Below, one piece after another: positions 17,518 to 59,757 of a DNA stretch of 64,000 nt. The translations under genes were made by a program, and so were the position numbers. The DNA lies in contig POWB01000023.1 in assembly GCA_010912705.1 (NCBI GenBank), positions 1 to 64,000 of the forward strand. The letters are read 5' to 3'. Numbering within the stretch: position 1 is the stretch's first letter; each line of letters starts with the position of its first letter. This DNA comes from Halochromatium sp. GTDB lineage: Bacteria; Pseudomonadota; Gammaproteobacteria; Chromatiales; Chromatiaceae. The notes beneath the pieces are model-generated. The model made no database searches, had not been told where the DNA came from, and was given only the letters and a program-made list of their open reading frames with translations.

Positions 17518-19113
17518 TTGGATGCGACAACTGCAATCGAGCATGCTGGCCAGATGACGGCACTGCAACAGCTCATTGATGGCCTGACTAACAGCTACTG
17601 GGAGCTGCTGGTCGGGCTGCTGGTGCTGGCCTTCATCTGGAAGATCGGCACGCTGGTGGTCGGCAAGCGGCCGCTGGCAGAACATTTGCCGCTGTTGACG
17701 GCACTGCTGGATGTGATCCTGTTGCCGATGTGGGTGGTCATCACCAGCGGGCTGTTGCGCTATGCGCTGCGAGCCTTGGGGCTGCCGAGCTTGATTGATC
17801 CGGTCGACTGGTGGACCAACTTCTTCGTCTACCTGGCCGCAGCTTGGGCCCTGGGCCGCGTGGTCACTGTGGTCGCCAAGCAGCGCCGGCGGCGGAAGAA
17901 TCGCAACGAGCATATCCCGAAGCTGATCGAGGCCTTGCTCTATGTCACCGTGATGCTGGTGGCGGTCGGGTTGTTCATGTGGCAGCAGGGCTATTCCTTT
18001 ACCGGTGTCTGGGTCTCGACCGGTGTCGCCGCGGGTGTGATCGGTCTGGCCTTGCAGCGCACGCTCGGGGATCTGTTCGCCGGAGTCTCGCTTGGGATCG
18101 AGCGGCCGTTCCGCATCGGCGATTGGCTTGAGCTCCCGGAAGAGAATCTGATCGGTCAGGTGGTTGACCTGAATTGGCGAGCAACCCGGCTTAGAGGCTG
18201 GGATAACGCCACGGTCGTGATCCCGAATGGCCGCATGGCGAGTGCGTCGCTGAAGAATTATTACAGCGACCATCATCTCTATGCACCCTGGTATTTCGTC
18301 AGCATCCCGGCCGAGGTCTCGCCGCGCTTCGCCTGTGCCCTGCTCCTGGATGCGGCGATGCGCTGCGATAGCGTGCTGAAGTTTCCGAATCCGGTCGTGC
18401 GCCTTTCCGATGCCTCGAAGGTGCCTTATAGCTACATGGTCTGGGTGCATCTGAAGAACTATCCGTCGATGTTTCGAGCACGCGAAGAGCTCTATCGCGA
18501 GATCCATCTTGGCTTGCAAGAGGCGGGCATTGAGGTCTCACCCGAGGTGACCGAGATGCGCACGCGCCGCGCGCACACCAATCGCGCCGAGCCGCCAACG
18601 GTGGCCTTGGCCTTGCGCAGTCTTGATGTCGCCGGGGTGCTGAATGACGACGAGCTGAATCAGCTGGCCGCGCGCAGCGAGTATCGGTACTTTGATGTCG
18701 GCGACCAGATCTTGGCCGAGGGTGGGGCTAGCGATGCCTTCTACGTGATCATTGGTGGCCTGGTCGACAGTGCGATCCGACTGCCGGATGGCTCCCCGAA
18801 GGTGGTGGAGACGCTCGGCCCGGGCAAGCATTTTGGCATCTCGGAGATGCTCACCACGCAGCCGAACTTCCTCGAGTTCATCGCCAATACCGATGTGACC
18901 CTGATCCGGATCGACCTCGATGCAGTGCGTGAGCTGATTGCGAAGCGCCCGGAGCTGGGTGAATACCTGGCCAGTGTGGTCAAGACGCGGCTCGATGCGG
19001 CCGATGCGGCGCGGGTTGCGAGCCGGCGCCCGGTGCGGCGGCTGTCGCTGCGCGATGTCCGCGATGGAATCGAGCGGCGTTTGCGTGGGAATCGGGGCGA
19101 GCGCCGCGGTTAG
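17518..19113 (+). CDS. MscS-family channel with C-terminal cyclic-nucleotide-binding domain
   Basis: The N-terminus has about four membrane helices; the MscS pore and beta domain follow (VSTGVAAGVIGLALQRTLGDLFAGVSLGIERPFRIGDWLEL). Residues about 370-500 form a CRP/cNMP-type beta-roll (YFDVGDQILAEGGASDAFYVI, then GPGKHFGISEML). The usual phosphate-binding GE-x(6-9)-RxA cassette is only partly recognisable, so cNMP binding is uncertain. Such fusions (bCNG-like) gate by ligand rather than tension alone. Starts at TTG 17518 or ATG 17554 are possible. It is divergent from moaA. Confidence 0.85.
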   Translation: MDATTAIEHAGQMTALQQLIDGLTNSYWELLVGLLVLAFIWKIGTLVVGKRPLAEHLPLLTALLDVILLPMWVVITSGLLRYALRALGLPSLIDPVDWWTNFFVYLAAAWALGRVVTVVAKQRRRRKNRNEHIPKLIEALLYVTVMLVAVGLFMWQQGYSFTGVWVSTGVAAGVIGLALQRTLGDLFAGVSLGIERPFRIGDWLELPEENLIGQVVDLNWRATRLRGWDNATVVIPNGRMASASLKNYYSDHHLYAPWYFVSIPAEVSPRFACALLLDAAMRCDSVLKFPNPVVRLSDASKVPYSYMVWVHLKNYPSMFRAREELYREIHLGLQEAGIEVSPEVTEMRTRRAHTNRAEPPTVALALRSLDVAGVLNDDELNQLAARSEYRYFDVGDQILAEGGASDAFYVIIGGLVDSAIRLPDGSPKVVETLGPGKHFGISEMLTTQPNFLEFIANTDVTLIRIDLDAVRELIAKRPELGEYLASVVKTRLDAADAARVASRRPVRRLSLRDVRDGIERRLRGNRGERRG

Positions 19114-22033: not shown

Positions 22034-24301
22034 TCAGCCGGCCGAGCGCTCGCGACGGACAGGGATATTGACGGCCGCTAGGGCCTCAGGTGGTCCTGGA
22101 CGACCGAACAGATAGCCTTGAAAGGCATTGCAGCCATTGCGCGTGAGAAAGCGACGTTGGGCGGAGGTCTCGACGCCCTCAGCAATGACTGAGAGTCCAA
22201 GCTGCGGCGCCAGGGCGAGGATGGCGCGCACGATCGCTGCCGCATTGGAGTCGTTGGTGACGTCATCGACGAAGGAGCGATCGATCTTCAGCGCATCGAG
22301 GGGCAGTCGCTTGAGATAGGCGAGTGACGAGTAGCCGGTGCCGAAATCATCGAGCGCAAACCGCAGGCCGAGGCCGCGTAGTGCGGTCATCTTGGTGATC
22401 GTGTCCTCGACATCCTCGAGCAGCAGGCTCTCGGTGAGTTCAAGCTCGAGCAGGCTCGGGTCGATCCTGTGCGAGAGCACGGCATGGCGCACCATGGCGA
22501 TGAAGTTGGGGTCGCGAAACTGGCGCGCGCTGATGTTGACGGCGAGCGATCGTTGCGCGCTGCTCGGCTCTTGCGCCCAGTCGGACAGCTGCGAACAGGC
22601 TGCATGCAGGACCCATTCACCGAGTGGTAGGATCAGCCCCGACTCTTCGGCCAGATGGATGAAGATGCCTGGGCCTAAGAGGCCGCGCTCAGGATGGGCC
22701 CAGCGCACGAGGGCCTCGGCCCCGATCAAGGTGCCAGCACTATCGACTTGTGCCTGGTAATGCAGCACGAACTGCTTGCTCAGCAGGCCTTCGCGCAGGT
22801 GCGCCTCAAGCTTGGTCCGTTGCTCCAGTGCGATCTGTGTCTTCGGATCGAAGAAGCGGAAGGTGTTACGGCCAGCATCCTTGGCCGCGTACATCGCTAG
22901 ATCCGCCCGCTTTAGCAGGTCGTCGACACTGGTGTCCGCATCATCGATCAGGGTTGCACCAATGCTGGGGGTCAGATGATGAGGCTTACCCCCGAGCGTA
23001 TAAGGTTCGCCGAGTGCCTGCTGCACCTTATCGGCGACCGCACGGGTCTGCAGTACGGCCTGATCGGTCTCATCGCTCAGGCCTTCCACAACCACAACGA
23101 ATTCGTCACCGCCGAGGCGGGCGACGGTATCGCGAGCGCGCACGCTACTGACGAGCCGTTCGGCGACCTGTTGCAATAAGTGGTCGCCCATATCATGGCC
23201 GAGGCTGTCGTTGAGGTCTTTGAAGTGGTCAAGATCGATGAACAGCAGGGCACCAAGATCACCGGTGCGGCGGATCGTTGCCAAGGCGTGGCTGAGTCGG
23301 TCGAGCAACAGACGCCGATTGGGCAGATGGGTCAAGACGTCGAAGAAGGCGAGCTGTTTGATCTGATTCTCAGCCGCCTTGCGGGAAGAAATATCTTGAT
23401 TCAGGAGTACTGCACCTAGGATGTCGCCGTTGCTGTCCTGGATCGGGACGGCCGAGGTGAGGATGGTCTTTGTTTTGCCGTCGACAGGCTCGATGCTGAC
23501 CTCTTTATTCAGGGTCGTCTCACCGTGGTGGATGGCACGAAAGGCTGGGCAATTCTGGAGCCCGATGCGGTGCCCGTTTTTGCTTGAGCAGACTGGACAG
23601 CTGCGGAAATGCTGGGGGCCGATCTGCTGTGTTCCGCTCCAAATCTGCTGTGCCGTGGAATTGCTATAGGTGATCTTTCCCTGGCGATCTAGGAACCAGA
23701 CGCCAACCGGTAGGTGCTCGACAATGGTCTTGAGTCGATCTTCGCTCTGGCGCAACGCATCCCGGGCACGCTGTTGCTCGGTCAGATCGGTAACAATTAC
23801 GGAAAAGGCACCTTGCTTCTGCTCGATCGGTAGCTCAGTGAGCGAGACATGGCAGGGAATGAGGGCGCTGCTCTGAACACTAGCCTGACGAATGAGCTGC
23901 AGCTCCAGGCGTTGTTGGGGGCGTGGTGATTGGCTGCGCAGCCAGGCCAGATAGGCGGGGCGGTCGGTCTCGCTGATCAGCTCGGCGAGCGTCGTTCCGG
24001 TGAGATCCTCGCGTGCACGCCCAAGCATTGCCACCATGCGAGGGTTGGCAAAATAGATGTGGCCGGTCGCGGTCAGGGTCATCGCCCCTTCACCCATCTC
24101 CTCGATCATCAGGCGATAGTCGTGCTCGGCGCCCTGCAGCTCGAGCACTCGACCGCCTTGCTGATCGGCGACGAGCAGCGCATCGATCTCGCCGGCACGG
24201 ATGGCATGGAGCACCGCCTCAGCTTCAGCCAAGCGCTGCTGCAGGGATAGCACTTTAGCCTCAGCGCTGGTCTCTAGCTCTGGGGATTGGTTGCTGGTCA
24301 T
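22034..24301 (-). CDS. PAS-PAS-GGDEF-EAL c-di-GMP protein downstream of kaiB
   Basis: This soluble 755-residue protein starts with a coiled coil. PAS 1 (about 65-175) contains MTLTATGHIYFANPRM. PAS 2 (about 190-315) has an unusual CPVC...NC cysteine cluster. The GGDEF domain (about 325-480) is intact (RLGGDEFVVV) with an RARD inhibitory site five residues earlier. The EAL domain keeps EALVRW, DDFGTGYSS and AEGVET. Both synthesis and breakdown of c-di-GMP are possible. It is 68 bp downstream of kaiB on the same strand and is probably co-transcribed, placing c-di-GMP output beside the Kai proteins. Confidence 0.88.
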   Translation of the reverse strand: MTSNQSPELETSAEAKVLSLQQRLAEAEAVLHAIRAGEIDALLVADQQGGRVLELQGAEHDYRLMIEEMGEGAMTLTATGHIYFANPRMVAMLGRAREDLTGTTLAELISETDRPAYLAWLRSQSPRPQQRLELQLIRQASVQSSALIPCHVSLTELPIEQKQGAFSVIVTDLTEQQRARDALRQSEDRLKTIVEHLPVGVWFLDRQGKITYSNSTAQQIWSGTQQIGPQHFRSCPVCSSKNGHRIGLQNCPAFRAIHHGETTLNKEVSIEPVDGKTKTILTSAVPIQDSNGDILGAVLLNQDISSRKAAENQIKQLAFFDVLTHLPNRRLLLDRLSHALATIRRTGDLGALLFIDLDHFKDLNDSLGHDMGDHLLQQVAERLVSSVRARDTVARLGGDEFVVVVEGLSDETDQAVLQTRAVADKVQQALGEPYTLGGKPHHLTPSIGATLIDDADTSVDDLLKRADLAMYAAKDAGRNTFRFFDPKTQIALEQRTKLEAHLREGLLSKQFVLHYQAQVDSAGTLIGAEALVRWAHPERGLLGPGIFIHLAEESGLILPLGEWVLHAACSQLSDWAQEPSSAQRSLAVNISARQFRDPNFIAMVRHAVLSHRIDPSLLELELTESLLLEDVEDTITKMTALRGLGLRFALDDFGTGYSSLAYLKRLPLDALKIDRSFVDDVTNDSNAAAIVRAILALAPQLGLSVIAEGVETSAQRRFLTRNGCNAFQGYLFGRPGPPEALAAVNIPVRRERSAG

Positions 24302-24369
24302 GGCCGTAGATGAGCGCTCAGCCGGGCTTAGATGTGCAGCGTCTGCCTGGCAGATGGCGGCTTAGGCGG

Positions 24370-24879
24370 CTAGATGCCCGTTGACCAGCTTGTCTGGCGC
24401 AGGTCGAGGCCGACGATGGCGCGTTCGGTGTCGGAGAGGTCACCGATGATCTTCCGCATCGGTAGAGGCAGGCGCCGGACAACGGTAGGGATGGCAAGGA
24501 TCTGATCTCCTTGAGCCAATTGTGGCTTATCGAGGAGGTCAATGACCTCGATTTGATAGCGACCGCTTAGGTGCTCCTCGCACATGGCCTTGAGGTTGGC
24601 GAAGGCGGCTAGCGACTTGGGCGTTTGACCAGCGACATAGAGACGCAGGGTCCAGGGCTCGCTCGCAGTGCCGGATTCAGCCTGATCCTGAGCAATGGCG
24701 GTTGGGGCGTTTGTTTGGGTATTAGGCAGGCTATTTGACTCGCTGTCGGGTTGTTCGTGCAATTGGCTGGCTCTTGTGCTGCCTAGCACGCTGTCGGAGC
24801 GCATGTCAGGGCTAGCGAGAGACTCGTTGGAGAGGATGGCGCGAACCGGCTGCTTGGCGTTATCGTCGGCTGCGCTCAT
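24370..24879 (-). CDS. kaiB: KaiB-like protein with long N-terminal extension
   Basis: Residues about 76-163 align with Kai[67 protein letters not shown]. KaiB switches fold to bind the KaiC CI ring. The proline cluster reads PLP where cyanobacterial KaiB has PPP. The first 75 residues are a hydrophilic, probably disordered Ser/Gln/Asp-rich tail absent from standard KaiB of about 100 residues. Its ATG overlaps the kaiC stop by 4 bp, and an AGGAGG lies within the kaiC 3' end, so the two are translationally coupled. No kaiA is in the window. Confidence 0.92.
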
Positions 24880-26597
24880 GGTCTATTATCCTCCTTCGTC
24901 ATGCTAGTCGGTGAATCGGCTCGTCGTACCGAGGCCATCGAGGCGCGAACTTGCAGAGACTGCGATTGGCGTTGCAGCTCGCGGTTGATAAGCGCTAAGG
25001 TCTCGGTTTCTTGAGCCTCAAACTCCTGCCGCAGTGCGGCGATCTGTGCTTCTAGTATAGTGCGGCGGCGCTCGAGATTCTGCTTGCGACGCTCAATCTC
25101 CTGCTCACGCTCGAGCTGCTCGCTCTCCTCTGCGGATTCCTGCGCGAGCCGCGCGCTGCCGGTCAAGACCCCGCCTGGCCCGATATAGACGTCGAGGATC
25201 TCGATACCCTGGCTGGTAATCAGGAATTCGCGGGTCTGATTAGAGTGCGCCATGCCGCGTGACTTGAGGATGCTGAGGGCGCGGTTACGCTCGCCGTCAG
25301 TGTTCAGCGCCATCAGGAGCAGCCAGGTATCGATCAGCGAAGAGATTGCCGAATCGGTCCGTTCTAACGACTCGCCGCCGAGCGTTAGGCTAGTAAACAG
25401 GGCCGTGATTTGACGGGTCTTGAGGAAATCGATGAGTCGCGTCAGCATGCCCTTGACTTCGAGCTCATTGTTGCCAGTGATGAAGCTATTGAGCGGGTCG
25501 AGTATCACCACCGCGGGGGTAAATCGCTCTACCGCCTGGTGAATCAGTGCCAGATGGCTCTCGAGGCCGGTGAAGCTTGGGCGGGCGGCATGAAACCGGA
25601 GCAGACCCTGCTCGGTCCAGTGTGCTAGGTTGAGGCCGATCGCGCTGAGGTTGCGCTGAATCTGTGCTGGCGATTCCTCAAAGGCGAAATAGAGTACGCG
25701 CTCGCCGCGGGCGCAGGTGGCCGCGGCGAAATGCCCCGCTAGGCTCGATTTGCCGGTGCCGGCAGTGCCTGAGACGAGCACGCTGCTGCCGCGAAAGAAG
25801 CCGTTGTCACCGAGCATGGTGTCGAGCCGCGCGACGCCGCTCGAGATGCGCTCGGTGGAGACCGGGTGGTTTAGGCCGAGCGAGGTGATTGGGGTCACCG
25901 AGATGCCGTCGCTGTTGATCAGGAAGGGATAATCGTTGGTGCCATGGCTGGAGCCGCGGTACTTGAGCACGCGCAGTCGGCGGGTCCAGGTCTGATCGCG
26001 TTCCTGATGATCGAGCGTGATCACGCAATCGGAGACATATTCCTCGAGTCCCTGGCGGGTGAGCTGGCCATGGCCACGCTCGCCGGTCACAATCGCCGTC
26101 ACGCCCTTGTCTTTGAGCCAGCGGAACAGACGTCGCAACTCCGCTCGCAAAATTGTTGGGTTTGGTAAGCCGGCAAAGATGGTCTCGATGGTGTCGAGCA
26201 CAACGCGCTTGGCGCCGATCGCATCGATGGCGCAGCCGAGACGGATGAACAGGCCGCTGAGGTCAAAGTCACCACTCGCCTCGAGCTCGCCTGGCTCAAC
26301 GACAACGAAGTCGATTGCCAATTGACCACGCGCACTCAGGTCATCGAGATCGAAGCCGAGGGAGGCGACGTTCTGGGTCAGCTCCGCGGCGGTTTCCTCG
26401 AACGCAATAAACACACCCGGCTCGCCGTAATTGGTCGCGCCCCTGACCAAGAACTCCATGGCGAATAAGGTCTTGCCACAGCCTGCGCCACCGCAGATCA
26501 GGGTTGGCCGACCGCGCGGTAAGCCGCCGCCGGTGATATCGTCGAGCCCACTGATGCCGGTTGGGGCCTTGGGCAAGCTGTTGCTAGGGTTGGTCAC
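24876..26597 (-). CDS. kaiC: KaiC-like double-domain ATPase/autokinase
   Basis: Two RecA-like domains are present. CI has Walker A GGAGCGKT (about residue 36) and the catalytic Glu pair FEET (67-68). CII has GTAGTGKS (277-284) and FEES (307-308). The autophosphorylation segment reads [12 protein letters not shown]: the site equal to cyanobacterial Ser431 is Ser and that of Thr432 is Ser, with the Thr426 equivalent kept. The C-terminal 85 residues form a charged coiled coil rather than the short cyanobacterial A-loop tail. GTG at 26597 is chosen for its GAGGAA Shine-Dalgarno; TTG at 26609 is the alternative. Without KaiA it may act as an hourglass timer or light/energy-responsive regulator. 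Confidence 0.95.
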
Positions 26598-26714
26598 GCC
26601 GTTCCTCAAGCCAATCAGGTTTCATCAATACTGCGCGCTCTTATCTCAGGTAGCTCTACTGAGCATGGTGACAGGGTCTGACCTTTGCATGCCAAGCTTG
26701 AGAGGGGGCAGATG

Positions 26715-29696
26715 CTAATGGCTCCATCTCTTGAGCAGGTTGTCGGCAGTCAGGGGTTTAGAGAAAAAGTAGCCCTGACCGAGATCGACCTGCTCGCGGG
26801 TCAGGAAGGCCTGCTGCTCGGCACTCTCGACGCCCTCTGCGACAGTTTCTAGGCCTAATGTACGCGACATTGCGATGATAGTGCGCACAATCGCCTCGTC
26901 GTTGTCGTCAGCGCCAATATCGCGCACGAAACTTTGGTCGATCTTCAATTGATCCAGCGGCAAGAGCCGCAGCATCGTCAGGCTTGAATAGCCGGTGCCG
27001 AAGTCGTCGATGCTGATCCTGGTGCCCAAGGATTTCAGCTCTGCGAGCAGGTTGCGTGCCGCATCCGGATTGCGCATCAGCATGGATTCCGTCACCTCCA
27101 GCTCGAGCCGGTCGGGCTCAATCCCGAACGCCTGCAGGGTTGCGGCGATGGTTGTGGGCAGGTTGATCTCGTCTAACTGCTGCGCAGAGAGGTTGACGGC
27201 CACCCGTGGCACCCTGAGTCCGGCTCGATCCCAGGCTGCTAACTGTTTGCACGCTGTCCCTAACACCCAGTCGCCGATCTCGCCGATGACTCCGATCTCT
27301 TCAGCGAGTGGAATAAATTGCCCCGGTGGCACCAGACCGAGGTCTGGGTGCTGCCAACGCACCAGCGCCTCAACCCCAACTAGTGCCGTATCGCTGAGTC
27401 GTACCTGCGGCTGGTACATCAGGCGCAGCTCGTCGCGCCTGACGGCACCGCGCAATGCATGCTCGGTGATCAGTCGTTCTAACGCGCCCTCGGTGAGCGA
27501 GCGGTCGAAGAATTGAAAGCTGTTGCGGGATGTGCGCTTAGCGGCACCAAGCGCTTGACTCGCATGGCGCACAAGGCTGTCGGCATCGGCGCCGTCGTCT
27601 GGATAGAGGCTGATACCAATGCTGGCGGTAATCACCAGCTCACGATCACCGATCCGCAGTGGCTTGGCAATGCGCGTTAGTAGCTCGCGGGCGAGGGCAG
27701 CGACGCGAGGTGCTTCGGCACGCTCTTCGAGCAGGAGTGCGAATTCGTCACCGCCGAGTCGGGCTAGGGTGTCGCTTGGCAAGAGCTCGGCTTGGATACG
27801 CTGCGCCATCTCCATCAGGAGGTGATCGCCGTCCTGATGGCCTAGAGTATCGTTGACTTGCTTGAAACGGTCCAGATCAAGATTGAGCAACGCCAGACGG
27901 CCATTGCGTGCCACGCGCGTGAGGGCATGCTCGATGCGTTCGTTAAAGAGGGCGCGGTTGGCCAGTCCGGTGAGCGCATCATGATGCGACAGATAATCAA
28001 TCTTCTGTTGTGCCTGCTTCGATTCACTGAGATCGGTAAACAGGCCGACATAGTGGCCGACTTGGCCGCTGCTGTCGTGTACGGCGCTGATCGAGAGCCA
28101 TTGCGGATAGATCTCGCCGTTCTTGCGCCGATTCCAGATCTCGCCACGCCAACTGCCCTGCTCGGCGATGTGCGACCAGATGGCCCGGTAGAAGGCGCGA
28201 TCATGCCGTCCGGACTTCAATAGGCGCGGATTCTGACCAAGCACTTCATGCGCCTGATAGCCAGTGATCCGGGCAAAGGCGGTATTGACCCGGACCAGGG
28301 CGCCATCGGCCGCAGTGATCGCGACGCCCTGAGGAGTTTCGGCCAACACCTGATCCGCGAGCGTGAGTTGTGCGAGCGAGCGCAGCTTTTGGGCGAGACG
28401 CCAGGCCTCGTTGGCGAGCAGCTGAGCGGATTCGATGTCGGTGGCGTCGTATTGTCCGGTCTTATTGCCGACGCCAAATAGCATGGTGACACGACTGCCA
28501 TCGATGACCGGTACCACGAGCGTGTTAGTGATTGTGATATGGCCAGTGGGCAGGCCTGTGGCCTTGGGGTGCGAGGGGTAGTCGCTGAGAATAATGGGCC
28601 TGCGTTGGCGTAAGGCATCGGCCCAGAGCCCGGCCTGCTGTAGTGGATAATGCATGTCGTGGTTGACCTGGCAGCCGGCGTCGAGGGTGCGGAAGGACCA
28701 GGCGGCGAATTCGACTGAGGTTTGATCCTCATTGACAAAGTGCGCGAAGCCAATCTTGCTGTCGGTCAGGTCTTCAGCGAGCGCAAGCGCTTGCTGGAGT
28801 AAGGCGTACTCGTCCAGGTTTTCGGTGATGCGCGGCAGCTTGAGCAGGGCGTCATCGCGACGGGTCTTGAGGGCGAGCATCAAACGGTTGTTCTTCTGCT
28901 CGGTAATGTCTTGTGCGGTGCCGATCGAGCGCAGCGGCGTGCCGTCGTCCGCATATTGGGTTTCGGCGTACTCCTGCACCCATTTGATCCTGCCATCTGC
29001 CAGTTGCAGGCGATGTGCAAGTGCATACTGCCCATGCTCAGCAATCGATGCCCGAAAGGCGTGATCAACCCGATCGCGATCCTCGGGGTGGACCAGGTTG
29101 AGGAAGCTACTGTAGGTCGGCTCGAGCGTGCCAGGCTCGATATCGAGCAGCCGGTAGATTTGATCGGACCAGAACAGCTGCTCAGTCTGGAGGTCGAGCT
29201 CCCAGCTACCAAGGCCGCCTAGGCGCTCGGCCTCGCGCAGGCGGCTTTCGTTGGCACTGAGCGCTTGAATCGCCTGTTGTTGCTCAGTCACATCATGGGC
29301 GATGGCATAGATCAGATTGGTGTCTGGCTCGGCAATGGCGGACCAGGCGAGACTCAGCCAGCGGCCATCACGGCAGCGATAGCGATTGATGAAGGCCGAT
29401 GTGATCTTGCCCTCGCCAAGCTTAACGGTCTCCGCTTGGGTGTTGGCAAGGTCATCAGGGTGCACCAGCTCGAAGAATGAGCGCCCGATCAGCTCATCTG
29501 GCTTCCAGCCGAGGTGCGCCTGCCAGGCCGGATTGCAGCGGCGGATGCGCCCGTCTAGCTCTGCGATCAGCAACAGCTGCAAGGACAGCGAAAAGAAACG
29601 ATCAACCTCATGGCGACGGCCCACCGGGGATTGTGGCTGTTGGCCGAGATCGATTGGCGCTTGTTCGCCGACAAGGTCGGCTGGCCGCTTGGTCAT
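26715..29696 (-). CDS. PAS-PAS-GAF-PAS-GGDEF-EAL c-di-GMP protein upstream of kaiC
   Basis: This soluble protein has about 993 residues. PAS domains lie at about 30-145 and 155-270 (the second with WVQEYAETQY, PAS_3-like), a GAF domain at about 285-445 (SKIGFAHFVNEDQ, MLFGVGNKTGQYD), and a third PAS at about 450-570. An intact GGDEF (RLGGDEFALLL, no RxxD inhibitory site) and an intact EAL (EALVRW, DDFGTGYSS, AEGVES) follow. The start at 29696 is preferred; longer starts would run into the divergent FKBP gene. It precedes kaiC by about 117 bp on the same strand. With three PAS domains and one GAF it is a multi-input sensor. Confidence 0.88.
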   Translation of the reverse strand: MTKRPADLVGEQAPIDLGQQPQSPVGRRHEVDRFFSLSLQLLLIAELDGRIRRCNPAWQAHLGWKPDELIGRSFFELVHPDDLANTQAETVKLGEGKITSAFINRYRCRDGRWLSLAWSAIAEPDTNLIYAIAHDVTEQQQAIQALSANESRLREAERLGGLGSWELDLQTEQLFWSDQIYRLLDIEPGTLEPTYSSFLNLVHPEDRDRVDHAFRASIAEHGQYALAHRLQLADGRIKWVQEYAETQYADDGTPLRSIGTAQDITEQKNNRLMLALKTRRDDALLKLPRITENLDEYALLQQALALAEDLTDSKIGFAHFVNEDQTSVEFAAWSFRTLDAGCQVNHDMHYPLQQAGLWADALRQRRPIILSDYPSHPKATGLPTGHITITNTLVVPVIDGSRVTMLFGVGNKTGQYDATDIESAQLLANEAWRLAQKLRSLAQLTLADQVLAETPQGVAITAADGALVRVNTAFARITGYQAHEVLGQNPRLLKSGRHDRAFYRAIWSHIAEQGSWRGEIWNRRKNGEIYPQWLSISAVHDSSGQVGHYVGLFTDLSESKQAQQKIDYLSHHDALTGLANRALFNERIEHALTRVARNGRLALLNLDLDRFKQVNDTLGHQDGDHLLMEMAQRIQAELLPSDTLARLGGDEFALLLEERAEAPRVAALARELLTRIAKPLRIGDRELVITASIGISLYPDDGADADSLVRHASQALGAAKRTSRNSFQFFDRSLTEGALERLITEHALRGAVRRDELRLMYQPQVRLSDTALVGVEALVRWQHPDLGLVPPGQFIPLAEEIGVIGEIGDWVLGTACKQLAAWDRAGLRVPRVAVNLSAQQLDEINLPTTIAATLQAFGIEPDRLELEVTESMLMRNPDAARNLLAELKSLGTRISIDDFGTGYSSLTMLRLLPLDQLKIDQSFVRDIGADDNDEAIVRTIIAMSRTLGLETVAEGVESAEQQAFLTREQVDLGQGYFFSKPLTADNLLKRWSH

Positions 29697-58599: not shown

Positions 58600-59757
58600 A
58601 TGAGCGATGGGCCGAGTGCCCAAACGCCCGCCCTGCGAGCGTCCAGTTTTTACTCAAGAGACGGCATTATGACGCATTATTGTTGGTATCTTGAAGGTTA
58701 TGTTGAGGGGTCTGAGCGGCTTCGACGGTTTCAGATTCACCGCCTACCATTTCGGGTAGGACGTCACGAAAGTTGCGAGCTTATTCTCAATAGCGCACAG
58801 GTTTCACGTCACCACGCCGAGATTGACCTTAGGGCTGGGGTTTTAATGGTGAACGACCTGGCGTCAACTAATGGCACTTTTGTCAATCACCAAGCCATCA
58901 CTGAGACTCGACTCAGCCATGGTGACATCGTTCATTTCGGAGATCAAGAATTCCGTATGATTGAGGAGCGCCCGACGGTCGCAGTGGAGGAAGAGCGAAC
59001 CTCAATTCGTAGCACCAACTTGACCCAGAAGCTACCTTCTGGGGCACGCCAGCTTCAGGAATTGTTGCAAACCGGCCAAGTCTCAGCTGTATTTCAGCCA
59101 ATCGTTAATGCTAATGGGGAGCCATTTGGCTACGAGATGCTTGGGCGGGGTGCCCTCGAGCAGTTGCCAACGGCGCCTTGGCCTCTTTTCCAGATTGCTG
59201 AGAGCTTAGACTTAGAGGTTCCGCTGAGTGAGTTGTTTCGGCAACGAGGCTTGCAGCTTGCTCACGGATTAGGCCCAAATCGGCGTTTCTTCTTTAACAT
59301 TCATCCACGAGAGTTACAGGACCCTGATCGCCTACTCGCCTGTATAGAGCGGACTCGACTGGCTTTCCCTAACCTGTCTTTAGTGTTTGAGATGCATGAG
59401 GCTGCCGCAACCAATGCCATATTGATTCGGCGCATCCGAGATCAACTGCAAGGTCTCGGGGTCGGCTTTGCTTACGATGACTTTGGGGCAGGGCAGGCTC
59501 GGCTTATTGAGCTGACAGAGGTTCCCCCAGACATCGTCAAATTCGATATCGCATTGATACGTGATATCGACACCGCACCCAGTGCAAAGCGCCAGATGCT
59601 GGAGATGTTTCAACGCTATCTACTCGAGCTAGGTGTTGCCACGCTTGCTGAAGGTGTTGAAACTGAGCCAGAATTTAAGATCCTACAGGAGCTTGGAATC
59701 CAGTACTTTCAAGGGTATTACTTTGGCAAGCCGAGCGCTAACTTGAAGTTTGACTAA
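58600..59757 (+). CDS. FHA-EAL c-di-GMP phosphodiesterase-like protein
   Basis: This 385-residue soluble protein has an N-terminal FHA domain (FRVGRHESCELILNSAQVSRHHAEI, ASTNGTFVN) and a C-terminal EAL domain from about 155. The EAL signature reads YEMLGRG instead of EALLRW, keeping the metal-binding Glu. DDFGAGQARL, VKFDIALI, AEGVET and QGYYFGKP are kept, so activity is possible. FHA input suggests control by Thr phosphorylation, which is rare among EAL proteins. ATG at 58669 is an alternative start. It follows the double-FHA gene by 204 bp; both share low G+C. Confidence 0.85.
   Translation: MSDGPSAQTPALRASSFYSRDGIMTHYCWYLEGYVEGSERLRRFQIHRLPFRVGRHESCELILNSAQVSRHHAEIDLRAGVLMVNDLASTNGTFVNHQAITETRLSHGDIVHFGDQEFRMIEERPTVAVEEERTSIRSTNLTQKLPSGARQLQELLQTGQVSAVFQPIVNANGEPFGYEMLGRGALEQLPTAPWPLFQIAESLDLEVPLSELFRQRGLQLAHGLGPNRRFFFNIHPRELQDPDRLLACIERTRLAFPNLSLVFEMHEAAATNAILIRRIRDQLQGLGVGFAYDDFGAGQARLIELTEVPPDIVKFDIALIRDIDTAPSAKRQMLEMFQRYLLELGVATLAEGVETEPEFKILQELGIQYFQGYYFGKPSANLKFD

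What the first reader, a model, noticed from the sequence alone, without database searches (positions are those of the whole stretch)
22034..29696. kaiC-kaiB sandwiched between two PAS/GAF-GGDEF-EAL genes
Four same-strand genes run sensor-GGDEF-EAL, kaiC, kaiB, sensor-GGDEF-EAL, with kaiC/kaiB overlapping by 4 bp and the others within about 120 bp. No kaiA or SasA-like kinase is present, so the output of the Kai ATPase may be c-di-GMP level instead of a two-component pathway. Kai genes next to signalling genes are known in some non-cyanobacteria, so the adjacency alone may not be new; two different c-di-GMP enzymes flanking KaiBC is the unusual part.
Basis: partly seen in the sequence, partly recalled or inferred. 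Interest (0 to 1): 0.78.

Follow-up and report, generated by a model that had tools for sequence, protein, structure and literature searches.

The report
Clock-gene cluster with swappable output
A purple sulfur bacterium carries two daily-timer genes followed by an enzyme that should control the messenger c-di-GMP, and that enzyme begins with a short, unnamed segment found almost only in genes lying right next to timer genes, where it is joined to several different output enzymes, so it is probably the plug that connects the timer to the cell.

Summary
The cluster is real: on the minus strand lie GGDEF-EAL gene A, kaiC, kaiB and GGDEF-EAL gene B, in a Chromatiaceae genome near Halochromatium/Lamprobacter. 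KaiC is of the KaiC2 (Rhodobacter) kind, with a coiled-coil tail and a Ser-Ser phosphosite. The robust part is not the double flank but gene B. Its first ~54 residues (helix plus hairpin) have no significant match in Pfam, NCBIfam or the PDB. Genome-wide searches found this module at 31 places: 30 lie 41-319 bp downstream of a KaiB match; the 31st follows a fused KaiC/KaiB remnant and has lost its own hairpin. The module is joined to histidine kinases, GGDEF-EAL, HD-GYP, sigma-54 activators or PAS alone; on the KaiC tree the output class changes at least 13 times. It also starts the kinase of the R. sphaeroides kaiCB operon. Best reading: gene B is the Kai-coupled transducer, with c-di-GMP turnover (EAL signature kept in 15/15) in place of a kinase output. 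Gene A is a clade-specific accessory (3 of 142 genomes, own included, each beside kaiC). No interaction was tested.

The parts
26715..29696 (-). Gene A: sensor GGDEF-EAL protein (993 aa from ATG 29696; ORF open to 29918): PAS x3, GAF, GGDEF, EAL; no Kai-linked module
   Evidence: module profile finds only gene B in this genome; close relatives only in G002 and G005, both upstream of kaiC
24876..26609 (-). kaiC, 577 aa, two KaiC domains, Ser-Ser phosphosite (SSLIDTW from residue 423), C-terminal coiled-coil tail
   Evidence: (best PDB match 8dba, R. sphaeroides KaiC, E 4e-200, aligned to residue 559)
24879..25154 (-). KaiC C-terminal extension (about residues 486-577) corresponding to the coiled-coil of KaiC-RS
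   Evidence: alignment; tail printed; boundary approximate
24370..24879 (-). kaiB, 169 aa; KaiB domain at residues 79-159; N-terminal extension of about 75 residues, variable between relatives
22034..24301 (-). Gene B: Kai-linked transducer, module + PAS x2 + GGDEF (with RxxD I-site) + EAL, 755 aa
24095..24253 (-). N-terminal module of gene B (residues 17-69): end of long helix, beta-hairpin, helix leading into PAS
   Evidence: no significant Pfam, NCBIfam or PDB match
23786..24088 (-). first PAS domain of gene B (about residues 72-172), found with the module in every Pfam-scanned example

Best explanation
A KaiA-independent type of KaiC2/KaiB timer is probably transcribed with gene B, its dedicated transducer. 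Shown here: gene B starts with a ~54-residue module that, in the genomes searched, lies in genes directly after kaiB whatever the output domain; gene B keeps the EAL phosphodiesterase signature residues and an intact GGDEF with I-site. Inferred: the module's hairpin docks on KaiB (or the KaiB-KaiC complex), so that the ATP/ADP-driven phosphorylation state of KaiC sets the orientation of module and PAS and thereby the c-di-GMP turnover (mainly hydrolysis) by gene B. In this lineage GGDEF-EAL stands where relatives, including R. sphaeroides, have a histidine kinase. Gene A is a clade-specific second c-di-GMP enzyme in the same gene string, without the module, and may tune the same pool.
For: Specificity: 31 distinct module places from genome-wide searches; 30 have a KaiB match 41-319 bp upstream on the same strand, and the 31st follows a KaiC/KaiB fusion remnant. 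Per search: module in 16 of 142 relatives, all among the 28 KaiB-positive; 11 of 398 Pseudomonadota with KaiB in 38 of 398; 3 of 142 with KaiB in 8 of 142; 5 of 78 with KaiB in 4 of 78 (these 5 are also). In 72,556 plasmid records 13 match; 5 loci opened, all with the module gene directly after kaiC-kaiB or kaiC-kaiB-kaiB. Own genome: one module, in gene B. Modularity: 68 distinct module genes among all loci held (classes): 30 HK, 15 GGDEF-EAL, 5 HWE-HK, 3 HD-GYP, 2 sigma-54, 11 none/PAS-only, 2 cut by contig end; Pfam confirms examples. At least 13 class changes on the KaiC tree, at least 7 for c-di-GMP enzyme versus other. EAL signature in 15 of 15, canonical GGDEF in 12 of 15. Co-loss: G246 has lost most of kaiC/kaiB and the hairpin of the adjacent module, while PAS and HD-GYP remain.
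Against: No binding, activity or transcription data. The search profile was built from kaiB-adjacent genes; at most 16 and at most 46 candidates per genome were scored, so distant or low-ranking copies elsewhere could be missed. Many KaiB genes have no module neighbour: 12 of 28 KaiB-positive relatives lack the module, and 21 of 81 kaiC-kaiB loci have no module gene after the last kaiB. Three of those have a GGDEF-EAL gene there without the module (L044, L046, L052), so c-di-GMP linkage does not need it. Two module genes on L077 do not have KaiB as the immediate upstream ORF, though both lie in a kaiC-kaiB string. Two of the 31 places are weak (G075, profile positions 1-32; G168, 29.9 bits). 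The hairpin is modelled with low confidence (block pLDDT 60-71). Module distances correlate with KaiC (0.59) and KaiB (0.50) no more than PAS distances do (0.66, 0.54). The tree counts had no shuffled-label control, and 'none' and HWE counted as classes. The co-loss case is one genome. No sigma-70-like promoter was found in the region, so co-transcription is unproven.
Confidence: 0.62

Rival explanations
1. The module proteins are inputs, not outputs: the PAS domain senses redox, oxygen or light and the module resets the KaiBC timer; the enzymatic domains report separately.
For: A PAS domain in each of the 19 module proteins scanned with Pfam; a redox/oxygen input role was proposed for the PAS-kinase beside kaiBC in R. 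sphaeroides (passages in PMC10931921, and PMC5520375).
Against: Enzymatic outputs change repeatedly while module and PAS stay, which fits a shared upstream partner driving different outputs; KaiBC-RS is reported to be driven by the ATP/ADP ratio (PMC10076222, abstract and passages).
Confidence: 0.22
2. Operon hitch-hiking: kaiCB and gene B are inherited as a block without physical coupling, and the module is only an N-terminal cap of a PAS family.
For: Module, PAS, KaiB and KaiC distances all correlate, as plain joint inheritance would give.
Against: Output domains are exchanged under a constant module; in the genome searches no module match at E 0.001 or better lay away from KaiB or its remnant; solo kaiB-module pairs without adjacent kaiC keep the adjacency (L146, L152, L157).
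Confidence: 0.1
3. One reading: A and B form an antagonistic pair that brackets the timer, one making and one breaking c-di-GMP at different times of day.
For: Both keep GGDEF and EAL motifs; B has the RxxD I-site, A has not; quartet conserved in three species; an independent HD-GYP/GGDEF-EAL bracket exists (L237).
Against: A has no module, and no close A relative was found in the five other congeners searched, two of which have a short GGDEF fragment in its place.
Confidence: 0.2

Closest known systems
KaiBC hourglass of Rhodobacter (Cereibacter) sphaeroides KD131 (PMC10076222; abstract and passages seen)
   Same: KaiC with two domains, Ser-Ser site and coiled-coil tail (8dba, E 4e-200); kaiC-kaiB order; the HWE kinase after kaiB (WP_012643402.1, L224) carries the module (47% identity to the 53-aa query)
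   Different: Output is an HWE histidine kinase there, GGDEF-EAL here; KaiB here has a ~75-residue N-terminal extension; no c-di-GMP gene among the 12 features annotated around the KD131 operon
kaiCBB plus diguanylate cyclase in 'Thiodictyon syntrophicum' Cad16 (PMC5944118; one passage seen)
   Same: Chromatiaceae, kaiC-kaiB beside a diguanylate cyclase gene; authors suggest joint action in flotation. A Thiodictyon MAG locus (L068) has a module GGDEF-EAL after kaiC-kaiB-kaiB
   Different: One flanking c-di-GMP gene and two kaiB; the passage describes no module
kaiC contexts of De Luca et al. 2011 (PMC3164672; section 17 read)
   Same: States that almost all non-cyanobacterial kaiC-kaiB clusters have a histidine kinase or GGDEF/EAL gene immediately downstream; proposes a shared N-terminal part (RtaNt) as KaiC-interacting for a kaiB-less kinase group
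   Different: RtaNt is described as receiver/SasA-like and belongs to the kaiB-less group; the module here is a short helix-hairpin in the kaiB group. The two were not compared here
Cyanobacterial SasA/CikA output (recalled)
   Same: A dedicated protein reads the Kai complex and passes it on
   Different: SasA reads KaiC with a thioredoxin-like, KaiB-like domain and a kinase (recalled); gene B shows neither

Membership tests
KaiC2 / KaiC-RS type | two KaiC ATPase domains with Walker A and catalytic Glu pair | tested here: met
   PF06745 in two stretches; Walker A at 40 and 280, FEE at 70 and 310
KaiC2 / KaiC-RS type | two adjacent serines at the CII phosphosite | tested here: met
   SSLIDTW aligned with the SS of KaiC-RS, which is EE in the S413E/S414E entry 8fwi
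KaiC2 / KaiC-RS type | C-terminal coiled-coil tail | tested here: met
   alignment to 8dba through residue 559
KaiC2 / KaiC-RS type | dodecamer, ATP/ADP-driven hourglass | not testable with these tools
   needs biochemistry
NCBIfam circadian KaiC | curated cut-offs | tested here: inconclusive
   NF006799 met (710.6 of 408 bits), TIGR02655 not met (349.4 of 546.25)
KaiB | Pfam KaiB domain | tested here: met
   PF07689 81.7 bits, cut-off 27
KaiB | NCBIfam circadian KaiB equivalog cut-off | tested here: not met
   99.3 of 110 and 93.8 of 145.3 bits; so KaiB family, not claimed as the cyanobacterial equivalog
SasA | N-terminal KaiB/thioredoxin-like domain | tested here: not met
   no KaiB match in gene B; helix-hairpin-PAS in the model, and the 50 Foldseek hits listed (of 1092) are PAS proteins
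SasA | histidine kinase domains | tested here: not met
   GGDEF and EAL instead
EAL c-di-GMP phosphodiesterase | catalytic signature residues | tested here: met
   EALVRW, N, DDFGTG, K, EGVE in genes A and B (motif list recalled)
EAL c-di-GMP phosphodiesterase | activity | not testable with these tools
   needs assay
Kai-linked module family (proposed here) | 54-position module match and a KaiB gene directly upstream | tested here: met

The most novel reading that the evidence does not exclude
An undescribed short adaptor domain, a helix plus beta-hairpin capping a PAS domain, is the general socket through which KaiA-less KaiBC timers drive their outputs in at least nine phyla (one an archaeal MAG that may be mis-binned), with interchangeable outputs: histidine kinase, c-di-GMP synthesis/hydrolysis by GGDEF-EAL, HD-GYP, sigma-54 transcription activator, or PAS alone. 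In these purple sulfur bacteria it ties the daily timer directly to c-di-GMP.
Probability: 0.55. Interest if true: 0.85.

Novelty: new variant of a known kind. Interest (0 to 1): 0.66.

Why it matters
How KaiA-less KaiBC timers speak to the cell is open: the R. sphaeroides timer is solved structurally, but the terms 'histidine kinase', 'operon' and 'c-di-GMP' do not occur in the main text of that paper. A module confined to kaiB-adjacent genes points to the likely output protein in each genome, R. sphaeroides included, and makes the question testable with a few purified proteins and one short deletion. It also suggests that evolution re-wires a clock by exchanging only the output half of one protein.

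Tried and rejected
Gene A as the key part: rejected as the conserved core, because close relatives occur in 3 of 142 genomes, the own one included (the 10 best candidates per genome scored; 17 of 142 have some match at 1e-50, the 14 others at 47% identity or less). The GGDEF fragments upstream of kaiC in L148 and L156 match A and B about equally, so their parentage is undecided.

SasA-like N-terminus in gene B: no KaiB-like domain found.

Module as a known domain: the PDB search gave nothing better than E 0.24; Pfam and NCBIfam gave scattered matches of one or two of 22 members at 0.0097 and weaker, to unrelated families. InterPro/CDD were not available.

Co-evolution by matrix correlation: positive for every pair tried and therefore not discriminating.

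Promoter/terminator scan: no promoter-like site and two overlapping terminator-like sites inside gene A, both counts below the shuffle means; uninformative.

Wider sampling centred on Bacteroidota failed, so generality outside Pseudomonadota rests on KaiC-selected loci only.

Papers: all 10 searches. No listing, abstract, passage or section that I saw mentions the module. Subscription journals are largely not held, and no bioRxiv collection.

Rows dropped: 84 of 246 loci contained in longer ones were dropped before the 81-locus count. The KaiC tree used 61 of the 68 module genes (those with a KaiC of 480 aa or more upstream) plus one outgroup; the loci cut by a contig end were in the tree, but their states were not counted. 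The matrix correlations used 58 loci.

Full report
What is there. The window lies in a draft genome of 4.19 Mb in 43 contigs. Its closest KaiC relatives in the genome collection are Lamprobacter modestohalophilus and Halochromatium roseum (86% identity) and H. glycolicum (80%), so the host is a purple sulfur bacterium of the Chromatiaceae (inferred). I equate unnamed handles with these records by equal contig lengths (G002 Lamprobacter, G005 H. roseum, G001 H. glycolicum, G006 a GSL MAG). On the minus strand four ORFs follow one another: gene A (sensor GGDEF-EAL), kaiC, kaiB and gene B (sensor GGDEF-EAL). kaiC and kaiB overlap by 4 bp. The KaiC is closest in the PDB to R. sphaeroides KaiC, including the C-terminal tail, and has the two serines of that group; KaiB is closest to the KaiB of entry 8fwj, the R. 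sphaeroides complex. KaiB falls below the NCBIfam circadian equivalog cut-offs, and KaiC passes one of two.

Conservation of the cluster. The quartet is complete in L064 and L065 (identity to the window: A 80%, KaiC 86%, KaiB 69%, B 79-81%). In H. glycolicum (L148) kaiC-kaiB-B is kept on the thiC side as in the window, while upstream of kaiC there is only a short GGDEF fragment; H. roseum instead keeps the FKBP side. G003 has kaiC-kaiB-B without A. G004 has kaiC-kaiB-kaiB-hybrid kinase; G007 has two kaiB and a module gene cut by the contig end. G001, G003 and G006 carry, besides kaiC-kaiB-B, a separate kaiB with a module hybrid kinase; G006's gene B is cut by the contig end. Close gene A relatives (78-79% over the sensor part) exist only in G000 (own), G002 and G005 of 142 genomes, always upstream of kaiC; the next best by score has 36% identity (the 10 best candidates per genome scored).

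The module. Residues 17-69 of gene B recur at the start of genes that follow kaiB in many phyla. I aligned 22 of them and searched whole genomes with the profile at E 0.001. In 142 relatives it occurs at 19 places in 16 genomes, all within the 28 genomes with KaiB. In 398 Pseudomonadota it occurs in 11 (KaiB in 38), in 142 genomes of the class of G472 in 3 (KaiB in 8), and in the 78 genomes of the class of G206 in 5 (KaiB in 4; the 5 are already). Of the 31 distinct places, 30 have a KaiB match ending 41-319 bp upstream on the same strand. The remaining one, G246, follows a 78-residue ORF in which the start of KaiC runs straight into the end of KaiB; there the module itself lacks its hairpin, while the PAS and HD-GYP parts remain. 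Two of the 30 are weak matches (G075, profile positions 1-32 only, and G168, 29.9 bits). Among 72,556 plasmid records 13 match (9 Cereibacter); I opened 5 loci, and in each the module gene follows kaiC-kaiB or kaiC-kaiB-kaiB directly, one being the KD131 operon. In the Sinorhizobium locus the kinase half is annotated as a separate overlapping ORF. Limits: the profile comes from kaiB-adjacent genes, and not every first-look candidate was scored (at most 46 per genome); in the own genome all 79 candidates were scored and only gene B matched.

Outputs are interchangeable. Over all loci held, 68 distinct module genes were found; in 66 the immediate upstream ORF is KaiB (the G246 remnant counted), and the two exceptions are both on L077, in a string kaiC-kaiB-kaiB-ORF-module HD-GYP-kaiB-ORFs-module kinase. 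ORFs were picked by a simple longest-ORF rule with priority for domain hits, not by a gene caller. Output classes by home-made profiles: 30 histidine kinases, 15 GGDEF-EAL, 5 HWE kinases, 3 HD-GYP, 2 sigma-54 activators, 11 without a recognised output, 2 cut by contig ends. Pfam confirmed examples and showed one of the 11 (L133) to be a kinase. Named records span nine phyla, one an archaeal MAG that may be mis-binned. On a quick KaiC tree of 62 rows the output class changes at least 13 times, and at least 7 times for c-di-GMP enzyme versus other. The tree has some long branches, 'none' and HWE were counted as classes, and I ran no shuffled-label control. Among 81 distinct kaiC-kaiB loci (held because of KaiC, KaiB or module similarity, so not an unbiased sample) 60 have a module gene after the last kaiB and 21 have not; 9 have a GGDEF, EAL or HD-GYP ORF directly upstream of kaiC, two of these being the short GGDEF fragments of L066 and L067.

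What the output does. All 15 module GGDEF-EAL proteins keep the EAL signature; 12 of 15 keep a canonical GGDEF with RxxD, and three do not (L060, L073, L237). Three further ones use HD-GYP. The common denominator of the c-di-GMP branch is therefore probably hydrolysis (inference; no assay).

Structure. AlphaFold2 of residues 1-180 (39 sequences, mean pLDDT 82.9) gives helix 8-35, hairpin 41-46/49-54, helix 58-68 and then PAS; apart from the first residues the hairpin is the least certain part (blocks of 71 and 60). The 50 Foldseek hits listed, of 1092, are PAS or LOV proteins, by title or recalled.

Mechanism proposed. KaiC phosphorylation follows ATP/ADP as reported for KaiBC-RS (PMC10076222, abstract and passages). 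The module reads KaiB or KaiB-KaiC, and the helix and PAS pass the state to the catalytic half. Direction (output rather than input) is inferred from the exchange of catalytic halves. That changed c-di-GMP levels shift the Kai clock of S. elongatus has been reported (PMC13001216, abstract), so feedback is possible too.

Relation to print. De Luca et al. 2011 (PMC3164672, section 17) already state that almost all non-cyanobacterial kaiC-kaiB clusters have a kinase or a GGDEF/EAL gene immediately downstream. PMC5944118 (passage) notes a diguanylate cyclase beside kaiCBB in a Chromatiaceae strain. PMC4794148 (passages) calls the R. palustris/R. sphaeroides arrangement a kaiC-B-PAS/HK operon. What I did not find in the listings, abstracts, passages and section seen is the shared N-terminal module or its exchange between outputs.

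Noticed in passing
L144:7958-16537 (G000:C9): Second kaiBC of the same genome: KaiC of 508 aa without coiled-coil tail, KaiB, a receiver protein and a HAMP histidine kinase, next to an RND efflux pump (AcrB-type and HlyD-type genes); the same KaiC-KaiB-receiver order in G002 and G005.
   Followed up: partly
L237:2347-5802 and upstream (G206): Independent double flank: HD-GYP gene (1174 aa), kaiC, kaiB, module GGDEF-EAL.
   Followed up: partly
L229:4595-7944 (G246): KaiC/KaiB collapsed to a 78-residue fused ORF, and the adjacent HD-GYP transducer has lost its module hairpin: a natural co-loss.
   Followed up: yes
L077:3018-14748: One Methylococcaceae string with kaiC, three kaiB and two module genes of different output (HD-GYP and histidine kinase).
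   Followed up: partly
L062 and L063 upstream of kaiC: Another lineage: long sensor GGDEF-EAL gene directly upstream of a KaiC and a weakly scoring KaiB, without the module.
   Followed up: no
L118:7341-8474: Module core appears twice in one protein, before and after the first PAS.
   Followed up: no
L096, L095, L099, L083, L121, L132: Bacteroidota kaiC-kaiB-kaiB followed by a 233-240 aa module-PAS protein with no recognised catalytic domain (Pfam run on L096 only).
   Followed up: partly
window 58600-59757 (+): FHA-EAL protein: a phosphothreonine-binding domain joined to a c-di-GMP phosphodiesterase domain.
   Followed up: no
window 17518-19113 (+): Mechanosensitive channel fused to a cyclic-nucleotide-binding domain.
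   Followed up: no
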